From: Brachyhypopomus gauderio
Lineage: Eukaryota; Chordata; Actinopteri; Gymnotiformes; Hypopomidae
NCBI RefSeq assembly: GCF_052324685.1
Contig: NC_135213.1
Coordinates: 39,546,200 to 39,610,199, forward strand
DNA length: 64,000 nucleotides
Direction: 5' to 3'
Shown one piece after another: positions 3,001 through 33,086 of this stretch; positions within the stretch are counted from its first letter, which is position 1; each line of letters opens with the position of its first letter. A program made the translations under genes and the position numbers. The notes beneath the pieces were generated by a model. It saw only the letters and a program-made list of their open reading frames with translations, was not told the DNA's origin and made no database searches.

Positions 3001-6000
3001 ACACCATACAATCACACCAGACATGACAGACCTGCCCATGAAGGACACACACCGTCCAATCACACCAGACAGGACAGACCTGCCCATGAAGGACACACAC
3101 AGGCCAATCACACCAGACATGACAGACCTGCCCATGAAGGACACACACCGTCCAATCACACCAGACAGGACAGACCTGCCCATGAAGGACACACATTGTC
3201 CAATCACACCAGACATGACAGACCTGCCCATGAAGGACACACACAGTCCAATCACACCAGACATGACAGACCTGCCCATGAAGGACACACACCGTCCAAT
3301 CACACCAGACATGACAGACCTGCCCATGAAGGACACACACCGTCCAATCACACCAGACAGGACAGACCTGCCCATGAAGGACACACACAGGCCAATCACA
3401 CCAGACATGACAGACCTGCCCATGAAGGACACACACCGTCCAATCACACCAGACAGGACAGACCTGCCCATGAAGGACACACATTGTCCAATCACACCAG
3501 ACAGGACAGACCTGCCCATGAAGGACACACACAGTCCAATCATACCAGACAGGACAGACCTGCCCATGAAGGACACACACCGTCCAATTACAGACTGAAA
3601 AACTTGCCTGCAGGCACAACCCATTCGACATCTATTGGATTTTACACAAAATATGTTGGTTAGGTGACTAGTCATGTTATATGTTAAATTTCATGTTTAA
3701 AATACATATATTATTGTCAGCAATATGTCTGCAGACAGACAGCGATGCAGAGAATTTGTGCGTTGAAGCCATTGTTGTTATAATTGTTAGCACTAAACTA
3801 AACTAACTTAATAGGTCATAGAGCATTCTTAATTCATTCTTAATGGTCATTCTGCTAACACTCCACTATACCCACAACTCATACTACCAGCGTACGCCAC
3901 AGAGCAAGCTTACGTTTACAGGACTGACAGGCCATCACTAAGTTAGACAGTCAAGCCATGACATTTCCCAACAACCTGAAGTCTCACAACCACACAAGAG
4001 GGCTGAAAAACCTCCAGAGTGTGGTCACGGCTTTCAGCCACGTTTTCACCAACACAAACTCACGTCATGCTAATGTTGGACGATGCTTGGAGAGATCTAA
4101 TGTGAGTTTTTCATACCGTGATAATCAACCACATTTAAACACTGAAACAATTATACTAACCATCTGGAAATTAACCATGATCTGCCATGAAAGCTGTAAC
4201 TGTTACATCACCAATACTAGAAGCCAAAATGAATCAGCATATAAGCAAACACATGGGACTTGCTCAGAAGGAGACTGGTAACCCGAGGTCAAAACACCAC
4301 CTACTGACACAGCAGGTTTCCACCACCAAACAGACCAACCTAAACACTGGATCCACTACAACAAAGTACACAAGTCAGTGTCACAGACCTAGATACGTGA
4401 ACGCCCCGTATAAAGTCAATAAGACGGGACTCCTGAAAGGAAAACATCAGGTGCCAATAACTTTTCCTACGCCTCAGGTCATCTGTCATTTCGGATCTCT
4501 GCCATCCCCCTTGCCTGATGTTTCTCTTTCTTGTATGCATGAGTGAATTCTGATCCCATTAAAATAAAATTAAAACTATCCAATCTTTTTTGGCTTCTCC
4601 ATTTTTCAGCACGCTTGTGCTGAAGTTTCAGCTGGGCTACACGGCTCTGTGAGTCACGCTGCAGATGGAGTTGCTGCGAGCATACATGCATTTGTTGACA
4701 GATACAGACGTCCATGTGAGTGGGCGCTAACGTAGACTATCGCTTTTAAAATACAAACATCCACAAAATGGTGGAGATTTTTCAATTACAAAAAATCCTC
4801 ACTCATAAAAAAATATATATATTAATGCTGTTGTATCACCTGCCACCACTAGTGAGCGAAATATATTACATGCAAATTAATATTTATGGTCGCGATTGCG
4901 TAAACCTGTTGTCTAGGGCATGCGTGTCCCAATAGGGGGACTAGACCTGTTGTCTAGGGCATGCGTGTCCCAATAGGGGGACTAGACATGTTGTCTAGGG
5001 CATGCGTGTCCCAATAGGGGGACTAGACCTGTTGTCTAGGGCATGCGTGTCCCAATAGGGGGACTAGACCTGTTGTCTAGGGCATGCGTGTCCCAATCAG
5101 GGCCAAATTGCACCCGCAGCCTATAATCAATAATATGCGGCTGGCAGCACCTGCTATTTTATATTCAACCAGAAGATGGCAGTAGATCTAGCACACAAAT
5201 ACACTTGGGAATTTGCATAAATCACATAAAGGTCGGCACCTGCAGTTTCACTTGACTTAATCTGGCCTTCATTGCAAAAAGTTTGGACACCCCTGATATA
5301 GAGTAAAACACATGGGCACATCCAAGCAGTGTCCTTCAAGGATGAGCTCATGAGAGACACAGATGAGGAATGTGGTCTTCATGGGTGTGGAGGAGGACAT
5401 GGTGGAGGAGGTGCCATGTCAGGATAAACCCCTTCATGGAACGACGAGATAAGACAATCCTACCGTGGCTGAAAAAGGCCATTAGTAAGACAACACAGGG
5501 ACACTAATAATGGCAGCACAAGATAGAGCACTAAGCACTAGTGAATATCATCTCTTTATTCGCTGCCACATGGAGTCCCGTGTCCTGCAGCCTACAGGAC
5601 ACTGTCCTGACCTCCAGTCACATGTGGTTCACTGGAGTGAAAGAACATTTCATGTGGTCAAATGAATTTTGATGTGCATTTCATACTGAGCTAATATTTA
5701 GGTTTCGTGTTCAATACATTATTCACATTTGGTGAAATACACATAAACAAATGCTTCTGAAACCTGTTTTGTGTGCATGTGTTTTCAGGCTAAGTAATCC
5801 ATCCCTGTGGCACGGCTACTGCAACATAACAGAACCGTAGTGTGGGCGTGTGATTTAAATAGTCTCTTTTAGGTATTGACAAACCCGTAAAAAGTGCAAT
5901 GACACACGACACAGCAGTGCAGATAGTGATGGTGGAGTCAACAAAGACACATCAATCTGTAACTATTTGGTATCGATTCCTTCATCCCATCAAGATCCAC

Positions 6001-16206: not shown

Positions 16207-19200
16207 TTATACATTCTTAAAGGTGATGAGGTAGTCCGGATATGCTCCTGCGTCACAGAACACCACAAAGATAAATGGGCTTTGCAAATTATCCACGGCA
16301 CAGTCATGTAAGCCTGCCTTGGGGTCGTTTGGGTCCAGAGGGTCTGGTTCCTTCATTCCTCTTGTACTCTTACATGGTGTCCCAGTCACAACTCTGGCCT
16401 TGTAGATGTATTTGAGACCATTCTCGTCTTTGTTTGAGTACTGGTCCTGGCAGGAGTACCAGGCCTCTTTAGCAAAGTAGGTGCCATCGCCATGAACAAC
16501 AGCTTAAAGAGAAAAAAAAAACCAAGACTTGGTTTAGTTGTTAAATACAACATGTATTATATACTACACATTGGATTAAAACAGGCTTGAAACATACCAT
16601 TTCTCCCACAGAAGCTCCTATTAAAGCCGTTCTTATTGATTTTTTCACAAATGTCTTTGGTAGTGCCGTGATAAAGAAACTGCTCGTTTTTCTGTTTGGG
16701 ATACTTCTTATCAACTGCCTGTTTTAGCACAGAATATCTCTGCCACTGTCGTTGACTCTGGATTCGCTGAATCTATGAATACATAGAGTCATTTTTTTAA
16801 AATTGGCGTTAATATTATACCCAAAAGTGTAATTTGGTGACAATATACCTGCACAACTTGGACAGCAGCTACACTTTGATGTTTACTTGAGTGAACAAAG
16901 TCTTTCTCTATGTTCTTGTATTCTTGCGTATCTGGATGGAGAGTAATTATTTCCAGGTCCTTTCCATCCATTCTGTTCCAGGTTGGAGGAGGATGAATAA
17001 TAGCTGAAAAACACACATTTAAAGTACACGTGCACAGTTTTACCTAGAGTTGTTCACCTGGAAATCCATATATCTCTATTAACTCAACCCACTGAATTAA
17101 GGTCCGTTCTCATTCTTATTAAACTTCCAAATTTGTAAATGAATAAAATTCCAGTATCCTCCGCAATGGAGGTTTAAAGAAGACGGCTACCTGTCTCTGA
17201 GTCCCCAAGCAAGGTCCTCTTGATCCTACAGGACTTCCCCTTTCTGTTTTCCACTTTCATCTCCTTGAAGTCCACTTTATATGTCTCCCCTTTCTCCTGA
17301 TATGTAAGTGTCTGTTCTTTCTTGTGGAATGCTAATTCCAGACGGTAGCTAATGCTGGACTCCAGGGGGACCCACGCGTTCCCTTCCGCTTTCTCCCAGC
17401 AAAGAGTTTCCCTTACTCTGCTCTCCTCACTTTCCCGAGTCTCTCTGTCCCTGGCTTCCTGAAGGAAGTTGTTGATCTTCAACGCAGCATCTAAAACATC
17501 ATCCTTTTTCCCCGATACTGTCCACTTGTCTGGGGCAACCACGAGCACACGCACTTGATTGCTCTCGCTAAATGCTACAACGGCTTCCTTCTCAGCTGTA
17601 GGAAGACGGGCCAGATGAGGGGACTGAATGTCCTTGCTGGTGCACTCGTCAGAAATGAGGTCTTCAAGGTATTTTTTGACCTTGGCAAGGTCGACAGTAG
17701 AGGTCCCAAATACCTCGACGTTCGTGACGGGGAATGTCACCGCACTTGTTGCAGCCGAAAGGCACAATGGTAGGCTGACTGGGTTTGGTGCTGACTGGGT
17801 TTGGTGCTGACCGGGTTTGGTGCTGACTGGATTTGGTGCTGACTGGGTTTGTTTTGCTTGGCCTACGCAAAAAGCACAAAACGATACAGCCGTGTTCATT
17901 CAAACCTTTAAAATACAGCATGGGTAGTTCTCTCTCAGTGCCAAAAGGTTACCTGAAAAACTTGGGGATATTTTTTTGAACTTCTTCAAAGCGTCTTGAA
18001 AGTCTTGCAACATTTTTGGTTGGAAAATGACGATATGGACACTTTTTAAAACAACTGGTGAGTCGATGGAAAAGTTGGCCACAGCATCAATCATGGCGCA
18101 TGCAACCTGAGAGGCAGCCAAGTTCCCTGCTCCTGTCCGAAAGCACAAAGGGCTTTTATTTAAAAAGCGCAACATTTTGTAGGACGTAAGCTACAAAATG
18201 TAATAGCTACCCAGTATAACAGACCACAACTGGCACTTAATAATCGCTACCCAATGGTCTCCTAAACATCTCAGTGATTTTGATAAAACACAGTACATAC
18301 CAGTTCCAAGAGCTGGAAATGAGACTGACTGAATACTGTTTTCTTCACACTTCTTTAGAACTTTATACATGCACCTGGTAAGTTCTTTCTCCTTGGTCTG
18401 ACCAACCATGTGAACAATATTCTTAAATGGCAGGTTTCCTGCTGTGGTCAGGACCACACCATCACTGGGTTGAGTACCTTTATCCAAGGATGGAATGGTT
18501 AGAACATCTTTTCATTAGCAACAATAACTAAATGAGCTCAAATTTATCTTGGCTTTGTCTTAATGCGCTAGTGCAGCTAGTAAAGCTATGCTAGTAAAGC
18601 TATTATAGTTACTGTGTAACATAGTTAATGCAATAAAGACTCATACCAAGTTTCTTGCACTCTGCCTCAACACTCTGTCCTGCAGCTTTGAGAATAGCCC
18701 CCGATACACCTGAGATCAATCAGTTGCAGTTTACACACTGCATCTTTCATTGTCTTGGGGCAATTAATCCCATCTAAGTGCAATTGATCCAACTTAATCC
18801 AACAAAAAATAAGCATCTTACCTGTGTTTAGATTAAGGCTTGTGTTAGTGCTGCTCACAATTGCTTCTGTTGTCTGTTTTGTGATGTCACCACAATGCAC
18901 TTTCACTTTGATGGGACCAATAACTGCTTCTGTTGTGCTATCTGAATATAAAATCAAAAGAGAGTATTTAGTATCTCAGAAAATACGAGATACTTTCTTG
19001 AACTAAAACGTAACATTACTGTTACCATTTCCAATATCCTCTTCTTCTGAACACACACTGCCATCATCCGAACCAAACATTGATTCTTCTTCATCCTCCC
19101 ATTCATCATCTTCCTCTTCGGTGTCCTAATAACATTGCTATTATGTTTAAGGCTGTGCATTACATATTAAACATGCTATTATTTTGGCTTATTTACCCAC

Positions 19201-22200
19201 ATACATTTGCAATTCAATGTATGAAGACTGGTTTGTATTTGGCATTTCTACCTGGGTTTTTGCAGTCCATTGTTTCAGTTCTTCTAAAAAGTCTTTCAGA
19301 ACTTCATCTCGGTCAATTACAACATAGATGAGTTTAAGAGCAGTGGAGGCACGTGTAGATAAATGATCTTTAAAGCCTTGTAGCATGGCATTAATGGATT
19401 CCATATTCTTAAGACCACCCCCACCTTTAAGAAGAGGAAATTGAATGACGTGTGTGTTAATTAAAAATAATATGGAGCGCTTCTAAAATACATTTTAATG
19501 CTTTTTTGTCTATACCAGTGCCAACAGCAGGAAAGGAAATGGTGCTGATCTGATTCTCCTCGCATCGTTCCAGAACTTTCTTCACGCGCAGAGTGGCGTC
19601 GGCTGCAGAATGGGGTCCCATCATATGGAGGATGTAATCACACTGTAAATTTCCTCCGCTGGTAACTGCAGCTGTATCGCCCTGAAGTTTCCCTTCACAC
19701 AAGAAACACAGGCTGCTCAGCTTGATAAGTGTTACATTATAGGCCTGTCAGTCAGGTTTGCTTCCAAATACTGCATGTACTAAGACACGGGTTATGAGCT
19801 AGTGGGTATGTGTTGGACTCTTACCATGTTTTTGGCACTCCTGCTCAACAGAGGGCCCAGCTGCTCTTAATATCGCCCCTGAAACTCCTGACATGGTACA
19901 TTGCACATTTTATATGACAACAATAACAGCAATATAAGTGATAATATGTAAGTAATAATACAACACTCCTGTCCTCCGAATAGATGGTGCAGCTTTGGAG
20001 TGTGACAGTGGTGACAAATGTGGAATTAGTTTTCAATCTAGATATTTCGTCTCCATCACACAGTCATCACTAGGAATGCAGAGATATGGACATATTCTGA
20101 TCTGAATATGTACGATGTATTTTTATGGTAGTATAAACTCATGTGCTGACATGGGCAGAATATACGATGTGGGAAGCATATACCTCCTGTCAAGTTCATT
20201 TGATCATTGGTGGTGTTGACAATTCCTCTGACAGTTTCATTTGTGATGTTACCTTTCCTCACTTCAATCCACACACCTGCAATTTTGACTGGATACAGAG
20301 GGATGGCAGAATTATTGTTTCACTATAAAAATACTTAAATTAAGTGAGAGCTATTCTAATCTAGAAACCTTTATTTGCTGGTATCGTAGTATGTGGTGCC
20401 TGTGTCCCTGTAGGGGATGGCTGGGGAAAAAAAATAGCCCATAATAAAATTAGTAATAACAAAAAATATAGATGTGCAATTGTAAGATTTTTGAGGACAT
20501 TAGATGAGCATTAACCTTCTTTTTCCGCTCTTTGAAATAACTGCAGTATGAATCCAAAATCTTTTGCTCAAACACTACCACAATTATCTCCTTAAGGCAG
20601 GATGACTTTGACTTTGCCAAATGGTTTTCCAGTCCGGCAAATATAGCTTTCATCGATTCATTTGGTCCAATACCCCCTCGTCCTGTGGAAAATCATATAT
20701 TCTTTATATTTAATGTTCAACTACATCAGTTGTTTCTGAGTAGGCCTAGTAAGGTAATTGTAATGGTCCTACCGGTCCCAATTGCCGGGATGGCCACTTT
20801 GACAGCCATTTTACTTTCACATAAGTCCAGGACTTTCTCAATGGAGACTGTGATAGCACCAGCATTGGGGGGCCCAACCATCTGAGCGATATACTTACAC
20901 GCAAGGTTACCACCACTTGTGAACACCACTCCATCATCTTTTTGAGGACCTGTCAAAAACGTATTAGATGACAGAGATAAATACCATATTTATGTATAAA
21001 ATGTTGCGGATTGGAAGCTTGTGTTGCATGTATATATAATTACCATGCGTTTTGCATTCATCTTCAACAGATTTACCAGCACCACTCAAAATTGCACCAG
21101 AAACACCTAATCAAAACAAAAATGCATTTGATCAAATATCAGTGCATTAAAACATTGCAACTTTAAATGCTACATGGCATGCAAATTTTTACCTGAGTTA
21201 AGATCTAGTGTCTTGTTGGTAGAATTAACAATGACATCCACCGTCTCTTTGGTGATGTCTCCTTTTTTGAGAGACACTAACACTCCTCGAACAGTCACTG
21301 TTGTATTCCCATATGTGTGAAAACAAAAGTAAAAACAAACAATACATTTAGGTGAAGATGCTACACAGTATAGGAGATAAAGCTACACGTATACCACAAT
21401 GCCACGATAAAACAAAGGTACTGTACCTTCAGTGTCTGACTGTACTTTAGAGGCAGTGTTTGTTGGATGGGCAGATGTATAAGAAAAACCCTGTTATGGG
21501 GAAAACAAATAATGTATAATAAAAATATAAAATGTTCACTGATGGGTATATTTTTGTTTACTCTAACATTCCAGTGTCAGACTAAAATAAATGGAAGCGT
21601 ACCATTTGTGCAATGAAGGCATTGTATTCCTCCACTGTCTTCACATCAGGATCTACCACAAATATGTTTTTCATATTTGTTGTGGAATTTGTAGAATCAT
21701 TGCAGAACTTCTGTAAGGCTGCCCTGGTCGCTACACAACTTTCTCTGATCGAAAATCCAAAGGTCCCACGTCCTATTGCTGGCATTGCAATAGAGGCACA
21801 GCTTTTTTTTTCTGCTTCCTGGAGACTTTCAAAGATGACGGATTCCAAATAGTGAGAGCTCAAAGACTGGCCACTCTGGGGTAACACGGCGTAAATAAGG
21901 GTCTTGGCTTGGAGATTTCCTGGGTCACTGAGGACTACATCCCCAGCAAGCAACGTTTGCTTTTGCTTTTGGATATTATTTAACACGCCTTGAATCTGAG
22001 AACCTGCAACCTGAAGGAACTCTTGGGCGATGGGGTTTACGAACGCTAGGCTGCTGTTCATGGGACAGATGAAAGCATCAGCTACACAATGCAGCAAGTT
22101 TCCTTCTGCAATTGTTAAAGTGATGGAGTCGTTTATTTTATGACTGTACTTGACTGGCTGGACACATCCTTTCTGTGTTGATATGTAAACCTTGCAATTC

Positions 22201-25200
22201 CACTCCCTGGTTTTGGCATTAACGATGGCCTCATGCTTATGGATGACCTTTGACTCTCCTGCTTTAGAATAAGTTTGCTTCTCCATGCAAATGGAGGACA
22301 CGTGCTTCCTCACCAACCCTACTGCATTCTGGATGTTTTCCTTTGTTGTTGTAACCTTTATACAAGGAGAGATCTCATTTGTGCAGGCAAGTGTGGTTAC
22401 GCCCAGATTACGAAGCTCCGGAATTTCTGATAAATTCATGCAAGAATCAACAAACTCCACTTCTTGAAGTGATTTAAGATGGACATCTTCAGTTGCTGGT
22501 GTTTTTTTCTCCAGATAATATTTTACTTTTTGTGAAATATCTGCCACTACTTGAGCAAATCCACATATAAAAACTTGTTGCTTTGAAGATGTTATACTAA
22601 CATTGTGAGCATTATGGCTTAATTCCAATTCAGCTTTAAGGGACTTTAGAAAGTTTATCCAGTTGTCATTGTTCATCACGGATGCCGGATCAGGTGTAAG
22701 TTGGATGATCTCCTCTTTAAGGATTTCCTCAATTTTTTTTTCAACTCTCTTGAGGTTTTCTTTTTCAACAATGATGCCAAAAAAATCTCCATCATTCTGA
22801 AAATAAGCTGCAATATCACTTTTGACAAAATGATCTTGCTCAATTTTTTTCAGATCTAAGCTCTTCAGAAACTGAAGCAGACGAGATGAGAGTTTCAAGT
22901 GTTGAAAGACAACATTGTCCAGGGCACGCTTGACAGCCACCACGGCGTCGTTTACCTCATCCTTTAAACCTCCGACATGAAAAGTCAGAGAACTTTCATC
23001 TTGAGAAAAATTCACACTCTGAATTATTTTGGAACGCACATTTTTTGCTACCAATTCAAACATCTCCTTTGAGTCAAACTTAATCTCTTTGTCAATAGTG
23101 TTTCTCTCCACTTCTAATTCAGCAGTGGCAACTTTAATAATGCTCCTAATCTTGTCTGAGAGAGCACTGACTTGTTCTAATAGACCAACAATTTTGCATT
23201 TGTCATCCTTAAAGGAAACCTCAACATCTAAAGTAACTATTCGGAGGCATTCACTCTTTATACGGTTCCACACCTCCACCTCCACATCTAACTCAGACTT
23301 GCTGTATTTCCTCAGGAAGGCTAGTGCTTCATTTTTGGCTTTGCTCTCCCAGGTCGGTCCAACTCGCAGTGCAGCTAAAGTCTCTCTGTCTACATCCATC
23401 TCCAGCACAATAACTCTGGGTGTTGTGGTATTATCAAAAGTTACATTCGCATGAACCATCTTAAGCTGATTCTCAAAGTAGCGCTTGTGATTGCTTTCGC
23501 TTTTTTCAATGTAAATGAGGATGTCTTCTTCAAAAGGAATGATTATGCTTGTGGGTATGTTAGGCAATGTAGACATTTTTCTCTTCAAAGTTTTATTCAG
23601 GCTTGGATAGAAGAGGAACGTGCCAAGGTCTGTCTCACAGACACGATGTTGCCGCTCCACAACTTTTTGGGCAACTGTTGAAGGAGAGATTCAGATTAAC
23701 TTCTAAAACACTTAAAACATGGTTGTGCCAAATGTCACTCAATAGAAAAATCAACTCAAAAGTGAATTCAGTCAATTTTTTTTTAGCATTAACTGAACTT
23801 CCATCAGTTGACATCATAAAAATGAAATAGCAAGCAGTAAATGAAGCGCATTATATTTGGTATATATGGGACATACCATAACAATCTTCAAACGATATGA
23901 TCACACTGTTGTTATCCGTAACCCGTACAATGGACTTGATGACACCTCCTCCGCTCCTCTTCCTGTTGCTGAAGTAGAGGGCCAGGATGTCATCCTGAAG
24001 GCTGCTAACATCTCCCTCTACCAGAACCGAGTCGGTGAGCTCCAGGTGAACCGCCCTGATCTCCATGTCCTGCAGCTTTTTACTCGCACACTTCTTCAAA
24101 AATGACGGCGCATCTAGTGACATAATATTATTAATTAGAAAGTTGTTATTTACTTAAATGCTCTTGTTCAGTCACTTATTGGTATTTTGTAGTTACCGAT
24201 ATCTTCCGTGAAGGTGACCACAATCCTGTCATCATCAAGAAGCTCCCACGTATGATCTGCTTTTTTACTGCAGCTTCCAATAAACACCGTGATCAGTTTG
24301 AGTTTGCAGGCGTCTTTGAAGCCGCTTAAGATGAAGCGATGCGGGTCCCATCTGTTTGGTACACATCCGTCCTCATACGCCTCCACAGACAAACCAAACT
24401 CATGCACCTTCTGCGTCAGAATCTTCTGTAAATCTGGAACAATTGGACAACAGGCGAACAAAATTTATTAATTGTTCGTGTCACGTAGGGCTCCGCCCCC
24501 TCGTCTAGCTGTCACGGTCGTCTGATCCATGTACCTGTGTTTTCCTCGTCTGTTTATCCTGCCCTGTTTCCATGGTTTCATTCTGTCTGTCACACCCCCT
24601 GTCGTCAGTGTTCCCCACCTGTGTCTAGTTAGTTCCTGTTAGTTCTGTGCATTTATAATCCCTGTGTTTCCCCAGTCTGGTGTCAGTTATAGTTCATTCC
24701 AGTGTGTTGTATTATCCTGTGCTTGACTCTTTGAGTAGTCCCCTGTTTCTCTGCCCGGTCACCATGTATACATTTGTGTGTCTGTGGTCCAGTTGTTTTT
24801 GAGTTCTGTTTTAATGACGTCCCTTCGTGTCTGTTATCTTAACTGTTCTAATTGCCCTTCTGATATGACCCACAACTGCGTGTACGACCACGAGTTTGGA
24901 ATTCAGCGTTTGTGTCCGCCTTCTAGCTCCACAACGTGCAAAGCGTTACAGTTAGAAGGGAGTTTTCCTAGATCACCTCCCAAATCAATCAGAACTATTA
25001 TTGTGAACAGGAACACGATACCCAGTAACACGTACACCAAATCCAAGAAGACAAACAAACATTCAAGAGAGACGTCATGACAGGGCATTAGGGGACAGAG
25101 CTTTTAGGACATACTAAGAAGAATGACAAGGGCACCGAAACACCTCTATAAAATAAAAGGACATTCCCTAATTGAATATCCCAGTCTTCTAAAGAGCAAC

Positions 25201-27188
25201 CCAGACTGACATACTAGGAGATACAGGGCTAAACCAGCTAATAGCTACAATCAGAAGTGAATACACAACACTGACATTTATACTAGGAGATATACATTTT
25301 TCCTTGCCACTGTCGCCTCTGGCTTGCTCATTAGGTATTTGGACCCGTAGTATTGTTAACCTTGTAAATCCTGTAAAGCGCTTTGTGACAACATGTGTTG
25401 TGAAAAGCGCTATACAAATAAATTTTGATTGATTGATTGATTGATTGAGTTAGTGTACAGGCTACAAGTTCATCTGGGGAAAAGGACATACTACATGATC
25501 TACATCTACAAAGACTAAGTAGTTGAGTAAGGAACACTGAGGAAAGGATCACAGTCCTATACTCCAACACAAAACTTAGGGAACATACATGAACTAACCA
25601 TGAGAACATCCTCAGGAATCAGAATCAAGACTAAGACACTTAACTAAACTGACAGAAACCAGCATTTGCAACATAACTTAGCTTACAGCATCCACATACA
25701 GACTATGACCTCCACATAAATGAGAACACTCTGGGAATATATACTGAACACCATTACTGAAAGAAATGGGAAAGAGCTGAAACCCAAACTAGAAGAGCGG
25801 GGACAAGAACAAGGGGGCGTGGCAAACCAAAAATGGGTGTGGTGGAACTAAATGTGACAAAGTCTAAGAAAGTTAGTTTTGATATTAGTGGTCATCATAC
25901 CTGTAATTTCATATCGTCACTCTTGGTAATTATTACTGCAATATTGATTCGGTCTCCCAACCACATCACTCACACATTAGAAATGTAATATATAGGGAAA
26001 CAAACAACTGACTTTATTTAAAAGTGTAAGTAAAATAACTTCATAAAGGATGTCTCTGAGTAACACGGATGGAAAATGTACCTGACTGGTTGGTTAATTT
26101 TAGGATCCAGCAGTTTTCCCCATGATTTATTATTTCTACATGCTCTGCAAACTGCTCAAAATACATTGTAAGAGTATCTTTGTCAACTGGCTCCTCGGTG
26201 TTAATAAGCAGATTGTGTTCACGGGTGTTCTCTTTGTTTCCTGAAAGACAGAGACCATACAGAACTTTATTTTAAAGTTCGGTACATTTCATGACGCACA
26301 TATCACGAAATCTGACTTACGATATGTATTAAAATATAAAAGCACAATTTTCAGAGCTTACCCATGTGAATTTCAGAGCCAGACTTCTAGCATTAAAGAC
26401 ATGTAAAAAAAAAACAAAAGATCAAAAAGATATTTAGTCTAGATTAGCTATCACATGATGATAAGTGCACTTCCTAATTCTTCAGGTTAACCTGAAGCAT
26501 CAACTTCATTTAAGGTGAATTCACATACGCATACTGGACAGAAACAGGCCGAATTAAATGTATTTTAGAGTTTTGAGATGATTATTTTTCATGGTCAGCA
26601 GCATCATGGAGCTCAAGTCAGCCAATTGTTACTGTTATTTAAAACAGAAGTTAAATAAACAACAAGAAAGCTGCTCACCTGGACGCCCTCGCTATCTTCA
26701 AGTGTGTGTGGTTTACTCCTAGGTGGAGCAGGTGGAGTAGGTCTTTCAACATCAGGACTTTGCTCCTCCAGAAGTTTCACTGTCAGATCCACAGTGCCAT
26801 GGCCTTTAAAATCGATTCGGTGGACCCGTTTGTCAAGAACATTCTTTATACCTATTCAAATAGCAAGGATTTTACAAAAGTCAGAAACATCTTATTTCTT
26901 TCTTTTTGGTGAAGTTACACATAAATGAATATCTAACAGAAGCCACAGTAACTAAATGAATAGTCCAACTAGTTGTTATAAATGTGATTTCTACAGCACT
27001 GGTGAAGGTTTCTTACCCATTTGGTCCGAGTAGATGAGCAGAGCTTGTCTCTTGTTCTGGGGGTATTCCCTGATCTCCACGATCTCTCCGCCTGATCTCC
27101 TTTTATTTTTAAAATATAACTGTAGTTTTGATTTTACACGGTCTAGATTATCCGGAAGACCCTCGAGAAGCAACCTTCTTTCTCCCAT
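16207..27188 (-). CDS. parp14: PARP14-like mono-ADP-ribosyltransferase with four macrodomains
   Basis: Interferon-type ADP-ribosyltransferase (PARP14/CoaSt6 family), acting in nucleus and cytoplasm in STAT signalling and antiviral defence. Coding exons 5' to 3': 27017-27188, 26679-26851, 26362-26386, 26082-26240, 24197-24433, 23877-24113, 21603-23674, 21427-21490, 21193-21297, 21044-21106, 20773-20949, 20516-20682, 20369-20420, 20184-20276, 19825-19887, 19516-19692, 19252-19424, 19026-19125, 18822-18941, 18647-18709, 18301-18477, 17953-18132, 17191-17862, 16849-17003, 16598-16772, 16207-16502. These sum to 6147 nt (2048 aa) with every phase consistent and no stop; human PARP14 is about 1800 aa. 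Order: RRM-like units (~1-334), KH-like region (~335-845), macro1 (~845-1025), macro2 (1047-1217), macro3 (1235-1403), acidic linker, macro4 (1437-1617), WWE (~1770-1835), PARP domain (~1845-2046). The catalytic His is in FLYHGTT, the Tyr in YFAKEAWYS and the third position is Leu in YPDYLITF, so transfer is predicted to be of single units. The start ATG (A at -3, G at +4) is preferred to an upstream in-frame GTG. Confidence 0.95.
17775..17854 (-). repeat. 16-bp coding minisatellite in parp14-like exon 23
   Basis: Nearly five tandem copies of a 16-bp unit (plus-strand CTGACTGGGTTTGGTG) lie inside the coding exon, about 370 nt upstream of the WWE-coding segment. Because 16 is not a multiple of three, successive units are read in successive frames and encode a low-complexity stretch (QSAPNPVSTKPGQHQT then QSAPNPVS). 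The frame on both sides is conserved family sequence, so the present copy number is in frame. Confidence 0.9.
17953..18941 (-). other. Macrodomain 4 exon cassette
   Basis: Exons of 120, 63, 177 and 180 nt again repeat the layout. The signature is HCGDITKQTTEAIVSSTN: the adenine-site Asp is present, but the first Asn of V-N-x-x-N is Ser. GVSGAILKAAG is kept; the phosphate loop reads SFPALGTGAGNLA and lacks the Gly-Gly pair seen in copies 2 and 3. It is followed directly by exon 23 with the WWE domain. Confidence 0.9.
19252..20276 (-). other. Macrodomain 3 exon cassette
   Basis: Exons of 93, 63, 177 and 173 nt repeat the layout of macrodomain 2. The protein begins RKGNITNETVRGIVNTTND, so the usual Asp of Gly-Asp-Ile is Asn. 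GVSGAILRAAG and SFPAVGTGGGG are conserved. The following 100-nt linker exon (19026-19125) encodes a strongly acidic stretch (DTEEEDDEWEDEEES). Confidence 0.9.
20516..21297 (-). other. Macrodomain 2 exon cassette
   Basis: Four exons of 105, 63, 177 and 167 nt encode a complete macrodomain. It starts KKGDITKETVDVIVNSTN (adenine-site Asp and ribose-site Asn present), followed by GVSGAILSGAG and the AIPAIGTGRGGIG phosphate loop. This is the copy that best keeps the ADP-ribose-binding signature. Cassette entry is phase 1; with the following 52-nt linker exon (20369-20420) the exit is also phase 1. Confidence 0.9.
21603..22150 (-). other. Macrodomain 1 (3' part of the large exon 7)
   Basis: The last ~180 codons of the 2072-nt exon 7 encode a diverged macrodomain running from NDSITLTIAEGNLLHCVADA to the end of the exon. 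It keeps an AGDVVLSDPGNLQAKTLIYA segment and the AMPAIGRGTFGFS loop. The adenine-contact Asp of the usual Gly-Asp-Ile/Leu motif reads Asn (EGNLL), and the ribose-site V-N-x-x-N reads ICPMNSS. Unlike the other three macrodomains it is uninterrupted by introns. Confidence 0.8.
24479..25858. mobile_element. Probable transposable element in parp14-like intron 4 (class unresolved)
   Basis: This block is delimited by TGTCACG at the left and ATGTGACA at the right, a short inverted repeat. It has GC-rich ends (GGGCTCCGCCCCC left, GGGGGCGTGG right) around a compositionally different body. Inside, 25345-25447 ends in GCGCTATACAAATAAA and (ATTG)n, a 3' tail common to fish retroposons, so it may be a nested insertion. 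The first ~200 bp (CCCACCTGTGTCTAG..TTTATAATCCCTGTGTTTCC) also resembles an LTR promoter. No coding capacity is recognised. Confidence 0.4.
25345..25447 (+). repeat. Retroposon 3' tail with (ATTG)n
   Basis: 'GTAAAGCGCTTTGTGACA' followed by AAAGCGCTATACAAATAAA and a (GATT)n run is a 3' end shared by many fish LINE/SINE copies. It supports an insertion inside the larger element of this intron. Confidence 0.5.
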
Positions 27189-27548
27189 TATCACCTTTTG
27201 ATTACAAACATGTACAAAGCAGAATTGACAAGCAACTTAAGAATACAGCCGAGCTGTAAAATACTGCGAGAGGTACTCTGCGTCTTTCATGAGCGCTGTG
27301 ATCTCAGCAGGGTTCTGGAGCTCTGATGGTCACCTACGTGTACGCAGATGTTTACCCGCACCACCGAATGACCAACACACTTTCACTTTTGCTTTAAGAC
27401 CCATGTGATTTCCTGGAAGCAAGTCTAAAATAGTAAGAATGCGCAGTCACCAGGAAGTTCTGATATTATTCGGCCGTGATCCCATATTGGAGAAGTTTTG
27501 GAAGACTACAAATACTTTATAAGATAAGTACGACGTTTCTTTTTAAGT
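27189..27548. promoter_or_regulatory. Shared divergent promoter of parp14-like and nmi with ISRE- and GAS-like sites
   Basis: Only 360 bp separate the two start codons, which point away from each other. At 27379-27392 the minus strand reads GCAAAAGTGAAAGT, an IRF/ISRE-type AAANNGAAA core. At 27410-27418 the plus strand reads TTCCTGGAA, a perfect TTCNNNGAA STAT palindrome. The two sites are 17 bp apart near the centre of the spacer. No TATA box is obvious. Both motifs are read directly from the sequence. Interferon control of both genes is inferred from these sites and from the known interferon induction of both families. Confidence 0.7.
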
Positions 27549-30500
27549 ATGTCCGATACCGAACATGGAAAAGTCAACGGCGAGGTAGGCTTGTGGTGTA
27601 AATAAACACGATTTGTCAAAACGAACACGAGATTTAGAACACGAATAATTTAATCAAATGTTAAATAAAAGATGTAGTATATGTCTTATCTTTCCAATGT
27701 GTGTACCAAACAGCTCCCCGGTGAATACAGTAAGACTCTAGCTGATGCCGTCGAGGAGTTGGAGAAATGGAGGGTAAGATGATTAGTTCAAGCACTAGGT
27801 GTTCATCTAAGTGTTGTTGTTCTTCTTCTTATTATTATTATTTTGATTCTAAATACATTGTGGAGACCAAACTGCTCATGTCCCATCATGAACCTTGATG
27901 GCTACATGTTCGTTTATGTTGCTGGAGCACAGTGCGCTGTGTTTGCCCAAGACCCCCAGACTTACTGTAGCCATGCCCGGTTTGTGTCAAAATGCTCTTT
28001 AACAGCCATCAAAAAACATTAAATTAAATTAAGTTAAATTAAATTACATTTTAATAAAATGTGAACAGCTAGCTAATTCACCTTTCTGCTCTGGAGTATA
28101 CAGTAAGTTCCTTTCACGAATAATGCATGGATATTCCTCACATACTTGCACAAACACGACACAGTTGTATTACTTACCTTTGTCAGTAGGGGGTACTATG
28201 ATCAATGAGCCCCAGACGTGTTAATGTGTGTGTTTAATGCAGGTGTTTAATGTGTGTGTTTAATGTATGTGTTTAATGTATGTATTTAATGCAGGTGTTT
28301 AATGTGTGTTTAATGTGTTTAATGTAATGTAATGTAGTTAGGTGTTTAATGTGTGTTTAATGCAGGTGTTTAATGTAGCTAGGATTTAATGTGTGTGTTT
28401 AATGTAGTTTAATGTGTTTAACGTAATGTAATGTAGTTAGGTGTTTAATGTGTGTGTTTAATGTAGGTGTTTAATGCAGGTGTTTAATGCAGGTGTTTAA
28501 TGTGTTTGTTTAATGTAGGTGTTAAATGTAGATGTTTAATGTATGTGTTTAATTTGTGTTTAATGTAGTTTAATGTGTGTTTAATGTGTTTAATGTAATG
28601 TAATGTAGTTAGGTGTTAGGTGTGTTTAATGTGTGTGTTTAACGCAGGTGTTTCATGTGTGTTTGTGTTTGACGTATTCATCGGAATAGAAATCAGTGGA
28701 GTCAGCAGAGACAGAAAAGTGCAGTCTGCTTTTGGAGAAACTGGACACAGAGGAAGCAAAGAAGAAAGCTCAGCAGGAAGTGACGGAGATCATGAAGAAT
28801 GAAGAGCAGCTCTCAACCACCTTTAAGATCAAGACCCAACTCATATTGGTGAGCTGTAGTACTGCCAAACCAGAATATCAGCCTTTAGGAGTCAGGGGAG
28901 GAGTCAGGGGCTGTTCCACACACACAGACACACCCGAGGGGAGGAGCCAGGGGCAGTACCACACACACACCTGAGGGGAGGAGTCATGGGCGGTACTACA
29001 CACACAGACACACCCAAGGGGAGGAGTCAGGGGCTAATAATGTTATGTGCAGCCCAAGACGTTTCAGTCGTGTGAATTCTCATGCACGTCTGGTTAATGC
29101 TAATGCCAACATCTATACTTAAGATTTGATATTTTAACTTTTATTTGCCATACTTTGTGATTTATTTTTAGTTTATTTTTTGTTTCTCACTAAAGGAGGA
29201 AATCTGTGGTCTTGATAAAGCTACCCAGGATCTGATGAAGAAACTGCAGCACTGCAAAGAGCAACTGAAAATCAAGAAGGCTGAAACAGACTCTTTACAG
29301 CAGAGATTTAAGGTACTAGCTAAAGAAGCTGTTTGAATGTGTACATCTCACAGCTCAGTGTGTTGGCTGGAGCATCCTGCTTCATTAGCAGAATTCTGCT
29401 GAATAAGACTCCTCTTGTATGGAGTCAGCTACACCACAGAATACATTTTCCATTTGACTTACAAGCAGAACCCATAATTACAGTTAAATCCCTTTAAGGG
29501 TATTTTTGTTGACACCACTACAGTGGTAATCAATGAGTAAAATATTTTTTTGAGTAAAATCTCAAAAAGTTGTTTTTAAATAATAAATAAAATAAAATCC
29601 CACAAAGCTCAAGTGCTCAAAAATGACAAAGGAGAATAATAACCCATTAAAGTGTGTTCTCACAACGGTGTCACTGTGGCTCCTCAGATCAAAGCCCAGG
29701 TGCCTGAGAAGAAAATGAAGTTTACTCGTGTGGAAAAAGATGAGCTAGATGAGAGAGAAGACCCAGGACACAATACTAAGGCGGTGTTCACCATCACCCA
29801 GAGACCTTCTGTTCTACTGAAGGGCGGCCAAGCTCTTATTACGTTTGAGGAAGAGAAAGGTGGAGTCAAAAATGATCACGTTGTTTGCGTCTTCTCTTTC
29901 ATTCCTCCTTCCACCTCAAGATAATGGAATAATCTCTTAATAGTTTGCTCTACTTGTCAAGGTCTGTTCTCGTCTGGCCAGAAAGCAGCATTACATTAAA
30001 CATATTCACAGTTAATAAATCCAGCATGTTCACATATTTGCTGAGTCACTTATTAACACTAGGTCTTCTTCTCATGAGAACTGTGAAAATGGACGCAATA
30101 GCCATTGCTGTATTTGAACTCTGTATTTTACAAATTCTCTCTTCAAGTGGCAGAGCAGATCCTGAGGCTGGCGAAATGCACTGTGTCCTGTGACAAAGAT
30201 AAAGTAGACGTGAAGCCATACGGCATCACTCTGGAACCCTCCGTGAAATTTGAGGTACAGTGAAATGTTAAATGTTGATGGTTCCTCTAACCTTATATGC
30301 TGATATTGTCCCTTATGTCTGTAAATGGCGACTACAGAAGGTCACGAGGAACCAAAGCACATCTGGATCTTCTCTGTTGATCTTTTTGTTGTTTACAGGT
30401 ACACATCAGCGTGTCTAAGATGCGCGTCGATTTCTCCAACGCTCCTTCTCAGCTGCCCGAGGACCGTATGAGGGACCGGCTGGAGTTGAGCTTCTCCAAG

Positions 30501-33086
30501 CCCAGCCGTGGTGGAGGTGAGGTGGAGGCGCTGGAGTACGACCCGAAGACCGGAAAAGGTCGCGTCACCTTCGTCAATACTGGAGGTCTGGAAAAACTTT
30601 CCCTTTAGCTTGTATTTGAGCAATGGAAGTACATGTTTTATTCTTATATTCTTATTATTCTATCGCAAATGTATTATTTTGTCTTAATTGTGAGACACAT
30701 TACTCACAAAAAGTTAAGGATATCTGGCATCGGGTGTCCAACTGTTCAATGTTTCAGTACTTTCTGCACAATTAGATGTTTTCTAACAAGGAACTTAACG
30801 GCAAAATTCAGGGTGAACTGACTAATGACTTTCCTGGTTCAATTAGAATTGGTATTTAAACAGTCCTCTTCATCATGCTGTTCACATTATTACATCATGA
30901 GACCAAGACGACCCCTAACAATCGCTCAACATAACCTCACCATTGAGAGCCTTCAAACAGGATGTTCTCAGAAGGAAGTGGCCACTGATCTTAGAGTGTC
31001 ACAGAGTGTCATCAGCAGGTTGTGACAGAGATACAGAGAGTCATAGAAAGGCGTAGAAGTGGACGTCCATTGGCCACGTCCTACACTGATGAACGCTTCA
31101 TTGTGAACAGAGTGCTGGTGAACCAGATAATGAACCCCACACAACTCCAAACACATTAAAGGGAGGTGAGAGGAACCCAAGTGTCATTTAAGACCACGTG
31201 AAACCATTTACATCAGAGGGGTCTGTGTGCTAGACGACCTGCAAGGGAACCGGACCACACCAGCAGACACGGGTGTAATCAAGGGAACCGGACCACACCA
31301 GCAGACACTGGTGTAATCAAGGGAACCGGACCACACCAGCAGACACAGGCGTCATCAAGGGAACCGGACCACACCAGCAGACACTGGCGTCATCAAGGGA
31401 ACCGGACCACACCAGCAGACACTGGCGTCATCAAGGGAACCGGACCACACCAGCAGACACAGGCATCATCGTCCTGCATGGACCAGGGAGGATTTACGCT
31501 GGATGAGAGACCAGTGGGTTTCAGTGCTTGTTCACTGATGGAAATCAATTCACACTGAGCAGAAATGATGGCCGCCAAAGATGAAGGAGACGTCAAAGAG
31601 AGCGATTTGCATCAGCCACCGTCACCAGACGGGTCTTTGGTGGTGGTGGAGGTGTCAGTGTGGGCAGGTGTGTCTAGTCAACACATAACTGCCCTACACT
31701 TTGTGACAAGCTCATGTTACTTCAATAACATCATTAATCCAGACATTGTGCCTCTGCGTGAACAACACAGACCTAATTTCATCTTCATGGACGACAGTGT
31801 TCCAGCTCATGGAGGTCGTATCATTAGAGAACGACTGCTGGAGATTGTGGTTCCTCAAATGGAGTGACCTGCACCTTCTCCAGACCTGAATACCATAGAA
31901 AACTTACAGGATCTGCTGAATCACCGTGTAGAGGCTCATAACTCTGAACCCCAGAACCTCAGTGATCTGAGGGCCCTTCTAGAAGAGCGAGATGTCAAGG
32001 CTCAGCATGAGACTTTTGAACAGCATGAGACTTCATTGTCAAGCTGTAATTAATGCTCAAGGCCACAGTTATTGTGACACTGATGGTTTTTGCTGCGATA
32101 TTTTGATGGTTTTTGCTATTTGTTTCAATAAATCTTTGAGATGAAGAAATCACCATTGTGTGATACTATCATGATATAAGCAGGTTCTCCTTTCATGATA
32201 TAATATCACTATAGTGTGAACATTTTATATTTTCCATAAATTTCACTCGAAAAGTCAAATATCCTTAACTTCTTGTGAGTAGTGTGTGTATAATCTAGTA
32301 ATGGTGACTGGTCTGTTGTCTTCAGTGTAATTACGTTGAATCTGTGATGTCACATTTTTTTGGTTTCACTTTCAGTTGCAGAGAATTTGGTTCTTAAACA
32401 AAAGTTCTTTGTTGATATTGGGAACGGCATGGAAGTTGATGTGGGACCAGTATATGAATATCAGCTGAAGAAGTTTCAGGTGGGCTTCAGTGAACAAGCT
32501 GATCTTAACTTATTTACGATTACTGATCCAGACTTGTTAATGATGTCGAGTCATGACCCCACATCTGATCCACTGCTGATTTCCTAATCTCACACACACC
32601 TGCTGTGAAGCCTTCGCCTCTCAACACACCTGACTCAGCTTGTCTGCTAATTAACAAACGAGGGGTTCAAAATCGCTGTCTTATAGCAGGAAGCAGTGAA
32701 AACATTAACATATGGAGTGTGGCGACACTCTGAACGTAGGACTTGGAGACGCTGGTCTAACCTGTGCAGTCTAATATTAGTTCTGTAGTCAGTATGAGCG
32801 GTTTTACTTAAAAAAACAAGTTTAAGTTGCTTTGTATCTTTGGTGTGTTACTAACTGGGTGATGTGTGGTGTATTCTAGACCTTCTCAGGGGTACCAAAG
32901 CGAACTGTGATGTTTGGAGGTATTCAGGACGTGACCGATGAGGAAGACCTGCAAGACCACCTGGAGATCCACTTTCAGAAGCCCAGCAACTACGGTGGAG
33001 AGGTGGAAACCATCAAGTTCCTCTCTGCTGGCAAGAAGATGAGGGCTTTCTTCAGTGAGGACAGCAGTGATGTTGAAGCCCAATAA
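27549..33086 (+). CDS. nmi: N-myc-interactor (Nmi/IFP35 family)
   Basis: Interferon-inducible adaptor that binds Myc-family and STAT proteins and modulates innate signalling. Exons: 27549-27584, 27714-27773, 28690-28848, 29196-29312, 29688-29859, 30148-30254, 30399-30585, 32376-32479, 32880-33086. They total 1149 nt and 382 aa with consistent phases; human NMI is about 307 aa, the extra length being N-terminal. Exons 2-4 (aa ~13-124) form a long charged coiled coil. Exon 5 gives KKMKFTRVE and KGGQALITFEEEKG. Two Nmi/IFP35 domains follow, with the repeated motifs RLELSFSKPSRGGGEVE (exon 7) and HLEIHFQKPSNYGGEVE (exon 9). VSKMRVDF and FSGVPKRTVMFGG also match the family. The ATG has A at -3. 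Intron 7 carries a Tc1-like transposon. Divergent from the parp14-like gene. Confidence 0.95.
28216..28660. repeat. Degenerate GTTTAATGT repeat in nmi intron 2
   Basis: About 440 bp of irregular tandem copies of a 10-14 bp unit (GTGTTTAATGTGT, GTGTTTAATGCAG, TAATGTAATGTAGTTAG). Longer blocks containing TAATGTAATGTAGTTAGGTG recur three times, giving a higher-order pattern. The array ends about 30 bp before the exon 3 acceptor. The left part of the intron (27774-28215) shows only a short ATT run. Confidence 0.8.
28888..29033. repeat. ~45-50 bp minisatellite in nmi intron 3
   Basis: Three to four copies of GGGGAGGAGTCAGGGGC followed by a TACCACACACACAGACACACC-type stretch. Purine-rich and CA-rich parts alternate. 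It starts about 40 bp after the exon 3 donor. Confidence 0.8.
30898..32052 (+). pseudogene. Tc1-type transposase pseudogene
   Basis: The N-terminal DNA-binding part (30898-31025, ending in a stop) and the C-terminal catalytic part (31590-32052, with an internal TGA at 31865) are recognisable but in different frames and interrupted. The C-terminal piece retains an Asp-Asp-Ser variant of the usual DN(S) motif and the PSPDLNTIENL segment. The normal enzyme is about 340 aa. The coordinates are approximate limits of similarity. Confidence 0.75.
31237..31470. repeat. ~38-bp minisatellite inside the Tc1-like element
   Basis: About six near-identical units of GGGAACCGGACCACACCAGC plus AGACACTGGCGTCATCAA. 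Variants differ at AGACAC(T/G/A)GG and GTAATC or GTCATC. It grew after or during decay of the transposase, because it interrupts the coding region. Confidence 0.9.

What the first reader, a model, noticed from the sequence alone, without database searches (positions are those of the whole stretch)
27189..27548. parp14-like and nmi form a head-to-head pair over a 360-bp spacer with ISRE- and STAT-type sites
Seen: two complete genes of interferon-related families start 360 bp apart on opposite strands, with an ISRE-like core (27379-27392) and a perfect TTCCTGGAA palindrome (27410-27418) between them. Known: NMI binds STAT proteins, PARP14 acts on STAT1/STAT6 signalling, both families are interferon-induced, and mammals keep PARP14 and NMI on different chromosomes. 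A different PARP-family pair in mammals (PARP9 and DTX3L) uses a bidirectional interferon-gamma-responsive promoter. Inferred: this fish has a co-regulated STAT-modulating module built on a shared promoter.
Basis: partly seen in the sequence, partly recalled or inferred. Interest (0 to 1): 0.75.

Follow-up and report, generated by a model that had tools for sequence, protein, structure and literature searches.

The report
Ancient back-to-back interferon gene pair
In an electric knifefish, two antiviral-response genes (nmi and a PARP14 relative called parp14rs3) start back to back across a 360-base gap that carries interferon-type switches, and the two genes appear to have stayed linked since early in ray-finned fish evolution and to be distant relatives of each other.

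Summary
Confirmed: in Brachyhypopomus gauderio, parp14rs3 (26 coding exons, minus strand, ATG at 27188) and nmi (9 coding exons, plus strand, ATG at 27549) match the public proteins exactly; the start codons bound a 360-bp spacer. The spacer holds a full match to a recalled IRF consensus and, 19 nt away, the window's only TTCCNGGAA. Against published consensuses the sites are weaker (ISRE 2, GAS 1 mismatches).

(2) parp14rs3 is not mammalian PARP14's direct counterpart: a cichlid PARP14 groups with bats, parp14rs3 in a separate ray-finned clade. (3) Four PARP14rs3 RRM units and two NMI NID units carry a phase-1 intron in one alignment column, so the genes are probably related.

Human PARP14 and NMI are both published composite GAS+ISRE genes, so a shared interferon-driven divergent promoter is likely. 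But in both human promoters the ISRE dominates, and here it is the weaker site. Promoter activity, start sites, and motif conservation in other fish were not tested.

The parts
16207..27188 (-). parp14rs3 coding gene, 26 exons, 2051 aa: RRM units, KH domains, Macro domains, WWE, PARP catalytic domain
   Evidence: P0121 reproduced exactly from 26 exons; Pfam RRM_PARP14_1/2/3, KH_PARP14, Macro (4 stretches), WWE, PARP (RRM_PARP14_2 and the KH models below their cut-offs)
27189..27548 (.). 360-bp spacer between the two start codons, proposed shared divergent promoter; GC 0.417, CpG observed/expected 0.83 against 0.45 for the window
27379..27390 (-). IRF-type element AAAAGTGAAAGT; 158 bp from the nmi ATG and 190 bp from the parp14rs3 ATG
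   Evidence: match to recalled IRF-E consensus RAAASYGAAASY; 2 mismatches to ISRE AGTTTCN2TTTCN
27410..27418 (.). GAS/STAT-type palindrome TTCCTGGAA, 19 nt from the IRF-type element (17 nt if the longer published consensuses are used)
   Evidence: only TTCCNGGAA in the 64-kb window; 1 mismatch to TTTCNNNGAAA
27549..33086 (+). nmi coding gene, 9 exons, 382 aa: IFP35-type N-terminal part, NID units
   Evidence: 100% to B. gauderio NMI P0001; Pfam NID E 2.3e-55, RRM_PARP14_3 E 1.6e-15
23877..24113 (-). parp14rs3 exon 6; the intron after it is phase 1 in codon 334 (Val) of the RRM3 unit, same column as the nmi NID introns
30399..30585 (+). nmi exon 7; the intron after it is phase 1 in codon 280 (Val) of a NID unit
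29688..29859 (+). nmi exon 5; the intron after it is phase 1 in codon 182 (Val) of the preceding, partial NID unit

Best explanation
The 360-bp spacer is most likely a compact divergent promoter that switches on parp14rs3 and nmi together during the interferon response. IRF1/IRF-family factors (and perhaps ISGF3) would bind the AAAAGTGAAAGT element and STAT1 dimers the TTCCTGGAA element 19 nt away, acting as one composite GAS+ISRE element that serves both directions. Shown here: layout, exact gene models, the sites, and same-contig linkage of the two genes in most of the ray-finned fish compared. Inferred: promoter activity, factor binding, co-induction, and the same head-to-head orientation in other fish. 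The pair is an inherited ray-finned fish arrangement, not a novelty of this species.
For: Layout and complete gene models. Linkage: a shared contig length for an NMI and a PARP14-type protein in 32 of 38 species listed with both, 0 equal lengths across different species (typed). Consecutive locus tags in Cirrhinus molitorella (QQF64_032644/032645), Coilia grayii (ACEWY4_023101/023102) and Megalops atlanticus (MATL_G00181150/181160). Small shared contig: 392,019 bp in Labeo rohita. A 7,978-bp 'lgn' contig length is shared by P0025 (NMI, 374 aa) and P0139 (PARP14, 2032 aa); the two coding sequences need 7,224 nt, so if it is one contig it is intronless, hence RNA-derived, and runs through the spacer. 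CpG observed/expected 0.83 against 0.45. In human cells the PARP14 and NMI promoters each lose the interferon response when GAS and ISRE are both mutated; GAS-ISRE spacing in APOL6, UBE2L6 and TRIM69 is 14-19 nt (PMC10287828), here 19 nt between the core sites or 17 by the published consensuses. Fish nmi is induced by type I interferon (PMC13030082).
Against: No expression, start-site or ChIP data were available, and no other fish's spacer could be read, so motif conservation is untested. In human PARP14 and NMI the ISRE is the dominant site, and mutating the NMI GAS site even tended to raise the response; in this spacer the ISRE is the weaker site, and one that weak turns up in 42% of shuffled spacers. 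In human NMI the two sites are 274 nt apart and in PARP14 adjacent, so the spacing here matches other genes, not these two. Same contig is not the same as adjacent: Hemibagrus guttatus has one shared contig length but distant tags (QTP86_002771, QTP86_017386). Six of 38 species do not share a contig length. Among the hits no named percomorph (group membership recalled) is more than 31% identical, while mandarin fish nmi is still interferon-inducible and tilapia nmi has ISREs, so the partner seems not to be needed for nmi induction.
Confidence: 0.58

Rival explanations
1. Two independent core promoters that merely lie close. Each gene has its own start site and regulation; the IRF-type and GAS-type sites drive only one of them, most likely nmi, to which they lie closer.
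For: Sites are 130-158 bp from the nmi ATG and 190-221 bp from the parp14rs3 ATG. Nmi is interferon-induced in mandarin fish, a species for which one search lists no parp14rs3-type protein.
Against: Linkage kept from paddlefish to knifefish is more than two independent promoters would need; human PARP14 and NMI have the same type of composite promoter; a 360-bp spacer leaves little room for separate control.
Confidence: 0.27
2. The motif pair is chance and the spacer is an ordinary divergent promoter; any interferon response comes from elements elsewhere, for example the GAAAGTGAAACC at 32362-32373 inside nmi.
For: By published consensuses a GAS(<=1)/ISRE(<=2) pair within 50 nt is in 2.75% of shuffles, and there are 4 such pairs in 64 kb, this one included; another IRF-E match lies at 32362-32373.
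Against: The stricter 12-mer and 9-mer together were in 0 of 20,000 shuffles, and the window's only TTCCNGGAA is in the spacer, though these patterns were chosen after the fact.
Confidence: 0.13

Closest known systems
PARP9 (BAL1) / DTX3L (BBAP) bidirectional promoter, human 3q21.1
   Same: Two genes of the PARP14 neighbourhood on one bidirectional promoter, interferon-gamma-responsive; together they have RRM, KH, Macro and ART domains like PARP14 (PMC13224862, passages; shared promoter also PMC4070648, passage; DTX3L is a composite GAS+ISRE gene)
   Different: Different genes and locus; the partner here is NMI, not an E3 ligase; bidirectional activity here is not measured
Human composite GAS+ISRE interferon-stimulated genes (PARP14, NMI, APOL6, UBE2L6, TRIM69)
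   Same: One GAS-type and one ISRE/IRF-type site close together upstream; 14-19 nt spacing in APOL6, UBE2L6 and TRIM69, 17-19 nt here
   Different: In humans PARP14 and NMI have separate promoters (different chromosomes); here one spacer lies between both; the ISRE here has 2 mismatches
BST2 / BISPR shared interferon-induced bidirectional promoter (PMC4311693, PMC4288319; titles and start of abstracts in the listing)
   Same: Interferon-induced divergent transcription from one promoter
   Different: Coding gene with a long non-coding RNA, not two coding genes
Mammalian PARP14
   Same: Domain order RRM-KH-Macro-WWE-PARP
   Different: parp14rs3 lies in a separate clade

Membership tests
Bidirectional (divergent) promoter pair | Two genes on opposite strands with 5' ends under 1 kb apart (definition recalled) | tested here: met
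   Start codons bound a 360-bp spacer, opposite strands; transcription start sites themselves not known
Bidirectional (divergent) promoter pair | CpG-rich promoter | tested here: inconclusive
   CpG observed/expected 0.83 vs 0.45 for the window, but GC only 0.417 and 9.4% of 360-bp windows reach 0.83
Bidirectional (divergent) promoter pair | Spacer drives transcription both ways | not testable with these tools
   Only hint: one 7,978-bp lgn contig length shared by P0025 and P0139
Composite GAS+ISRE interferon-stimulated gene | GAS element | tested here: met
   TTCCTGGAA, 1 mismatch to TTTCNNNGAAA; a GAS that good is in 22% of shuffled spacers
Composite GAS+ISRE interferon-stimulated gene | ISRE element | tested here: inconclusive
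   2 mismatches to AGTTTCN2TTTCN; full match to recalled IRF-E consensus
Composite GAS+ISRE interferon-stimulated gene | Induction by type I and II interferon | not testable with these tools
   Reported for human PARP14 and NMI promoters and, for type I interferon, for mandarin fish nmi
NMI | Tandem NID units with IFP35-type N-terminal part | tested here: met
   Pfam NID (2 stretches) and IFP_35_N; 100% to B. gauderio NMI
PARP14 (mammalian orthologue) | RRM, KH, Macro, WWE, PARP domain order | tested here: met
   (KH matches below Pfam cut-offs)
PARP14 (mammalian orthologue) | Groups with mammalian PARP14 in a tree | tested here: not met
   21 rs3-type rows in their own clade (100/100); cichlid P0214 with two bats (100/99) (28 rows, one teleost only in the bat clade, midpoint root, long branches flagged for PARP10, Glandiceps and one Mercenaria row)

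The most novel reading that the evidence does not exclude
nmi and parp14rs3 are not just neighbours but relatives: nmi arose by an inverted partial duplication of the 5' end of a PARP14-type gene, which created the head-to-head layout and a mirrored, shared interferon promoter in one step, early in vertebrate history. PARP9/DTX3L would be a second head-to-head pair of PARP14-family genes made the same way, and RBM43, which shares the NID/RRM-type domain and lies on human chromosome 2 near NMI, a tetrapod relict of the lost parp14rs3.
Probability: 0.3. Interest if true: 0.7.

Novelty: new member of a known kind. Interest (0 to 1): 0.5.

Why it matters
Interferon-induced genes are usually studied one by one. 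A head-to-head pair whose linkage is kept across ray-finned fish would tie production of an ADP-ribosylation enzyme to that of a STAT-interacting regulator, and fish that seem to lack the partner (percomorphs) would offer a natural comparison. If the two genes are also siblings, the origin of the NMI/IFP35 family becomes traceable: it would be an offshoot of the RRM array of PARP14-type genes, with the shared promoter as a by-product of the duplication.

Tried and rejected
Whole-genome search of the window's own assembly was tried seven times and never answered, so other parp14 copies in this genome were not examined. No eukaryotic genome collection was at hand, so the spacers of other fish could not be aligned. 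The bacterial promoter scan found 1 site against 1.3 expected and is irrelevant to a fish. A coding-score scan outside the pair (judged by eye) and Pfam on three right-flank ORFs showed no recognisable gene between 33.1 and 64 kb. Profile comparison of NMI with the PARP14 N-terminus gave low HHalign probabilities (34.6% at best, P 4.1e-4); the case for relatedness rests on Pfam cross-matches and the introns. Idea rejected: that the pair is a novelty of this knifefish. Paper searches whose listings showed no report of the pair: and 43 for NID with RRM; only titles, abstract starts and the passages named were seen, and a paper worded otherwise or not held would be missed. The 2006 PARP9/DTX3L paper is not held. 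On re-checking, the confidence in the best explanation was lowered from 0.62 to 0.58 because the dominance of the ISRE in the human promoters had been left out.

Full report
What is there. The window comes from the knifefish Brachyhypopomus gauderio: the nmi model (9 exons, 27549-33086, plus strand) is identical to that species' NMI over 382 aa (P0001), and the species' parp14rs3 protein (P0121, 'poly(ADP-ribose) polymerase family member 14-related sequence 3 isoform X2') is reproduced exactly by 26 exons running from 27188 to 16207 on the minus strand. The start codons bound a 360-bp spacer. The next gene to the left is ubxn4 (UBX domain, best PDB match UBX domain-containing protein 4), tail to tail with parp14rs3.

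The sites. On the minus strand 27379-27390 reads AAAAGTGAAAGT, a full match to the IRF-E consensus RAAASYGAAASY (recalled, from no call); 27410-27418 reads TTCCTGGAA. In 20,000 dinucleotide shuffles of the spacer the first pattern appears in 0.32%, the second in 0.34%, both in none; TTCCNGGAA is unique in the 64 kb and RAAASYGAAASY occurs 4 times. These patterns were chosen knowing the sites. With consensuses printed in PMC10287828 the ISRE has 2 mismatches and the GAS 1; an ISRE that weak is in 42% of 4,000 shuffles, a GAS that good in 22%, and a pair within 50 nt in 2.75%, with 4 such pairs in the whole window (this one included) and 47 of 3,146 other 360-bp windows holding one. The motif case is therefore moderate, and the 'ISRE' is better called an IRF-type site.

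How old the pair is. Protein tables give the length of the longest contig that encodes each hit. Of 38 species with a contig length for both an NMI (best 120 rows each) and a PARP14-type hit (98 rows, the whole list), 32 share a length, and no length is shared between different species. The 32 include bowfin (Amia ocellicauda, 30,710,096) and paddlefish (Polyodon spathula, 47,460,930). The six that differ are Arapaima gigas, Archocentrus centrarchus, Clarias gariepinus, Conger conger, Denticeps clupeoides and Trachinotus anak; in Archocentrus the PARP hit is of the other PARP14 clade and in Trachinotus it is named PARP10; different assemblies may explain some of the rest, which was not checked. 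Three species have consecutive locus tags for the two genes, which points to adjacency; one (Hemibagrus guttatus) has distant tags on one contig length. Orientation in other species was not seen. No named percomorph (group membership recalled) exceeds 31% identity although NMI is listed in many, so the partner may be lost there; four 'lgn' rows have no named species, and the search reaches only relatives that share short words.

A transcribed spacer? P0025 (NMI) and P0139 (PARP14) are each on one unnamed 'lgn' contig of 7,978 bp. Their coding parts need 7,224 nt. If it is one contig, it carries both without introns, so it was assembled from RNA reads covering the spacer. The contig itself was not seen.

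Which PARP14. In a tree of 28 C-terminal segments (last 620 aa), 21 ray-finned fish proteins from paddlefish to knifefish form one clade (100/100) and a cichlid PARP14-like protein joins two bat PARP14 proteins (100/99). So the parp14rs3 line probably split off before ray-finned fish and tetrapods parted. Only one teleost stands for the other clade, the root is a midpoint, and long branches are flagged for the outer rows. Daugherty 2014 notes that many fish have additional PARP14 copies (PMC4038475, one passage).

Two related genes. Pfam matches NMI to RRM_PARP14_3 (E 1.6e-15, above cut-off) and RRM_PARP14_1 (below cut-off here, above it in bowfin NMI), and PARP14rs3 to NID (25.6 bits, cut-off 25; bowfin 21.8, below). 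In a MAFFT alignment, four RRM units of PARP14rs3 (introns in codons 58, 176, 255, 334) and two NID units of NMI (codons 182, 280) carry a phase-1 intron in the same column; the last NMI unit ends in a stop shortly before or at that column. MAFFT saw no introns, but I cut the units after I knew where the introns lay; other introns near unit borders (codons 123 in PARP14rs3, 217 and 314 in NMI) were not part of the comparison. Profile comparison aligns the same parts (P 4.1e-4, probability 34.6%). A recalled human RBM43 sequence matches NID above cut-off (27.3 bits, cut-off 25) and RRM_PARP14_1 and _3 just below (23.8 of 27, 22.9 of 24); lead variants assigned to RBM43 and NMI are listed about 230 kb apart on human chromosome 2 (PMC13371021, passages). 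This suggests common descent of these RRM/NID genes; that nmi arose by inverted duplication at this locus is an inference.

Function. In human cells PARP14, DTX3L and NMI are composite GAS+ISRE genes or tested as such, and double mutation abolishes the interferon response of the PARP14 and NMI promoters; in both the ISRE is the dominant site, and mutating the NMI GAS site tended to increase sensitivity (PMC10287828, passages). That counts somewhat against this spacer, whose ISRE is the weaker site. Fish nmi is interferon-induced, with ISREs in zebrafish and tilapia promoters (PMC13030082, section 3.3 passages). PARP14 is listed as up-regulated in virus-infected sole (PMC8875540, passages), without saying which paralogue. 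PARP9 and DTX3L share a bidirectional promoter (PMC13224862, passages; PMC4070648, passages). Taken together the spacer is most likely a shared interferon-driven promoter; this is inference, not measurement.

Verdict. The layout is real, the linkage is ancient, and the spacer is probably functional; it is of a known kind. The more unusual part is the probable kinship of the two genes.

Noticed in passing
27433-27547: GTAAGA at 27433 and a pyrimidine-rich stretch ending in AAG just before the nmi ATG could bound a short 5'-UTR intron, which would put the nmi start site upstream of 27433. Seen by eye.
   Followed up: no
32362-32373: A second IRF-E match (GAAAGTGAAACC on the minus strand) lies in the pyrimidine-rich stretch before nmi exon 8.
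   Followed up: no
30586-32375: nmi intron 7 holds what looks by eye like a decayed Tc1-type transposon with a small tandem repeat; Pfam found no match to the ORF at 31559-31867.
   Followed up: partly
28221-28662: Degenerate minisatellite (TTAATGTGTGTGT units, about 34 copies) in nmi intron 2.
   Followed up: no
33100-64000: About 31 kb to the right of nmi without a coding exon that I could recognise in a coding-score scan.
   Followed up: partly
one search hits: No named percomorph above 31% identity among the 98 parp14rs3 hits although NMI is listed in many percomorphs: possible loss of one half of the pair.
   Followed up: partly
and 26 hits: Both Megalops species and Polyodon have two NMI copies on different contigs; in each, only one shares the contig length of the PARP14-type hit found.
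   Followed up: partly
2863-3690: Long minisatellite translating to repeated '[16 protein letters not shown]'-like units.
   Followed up: no
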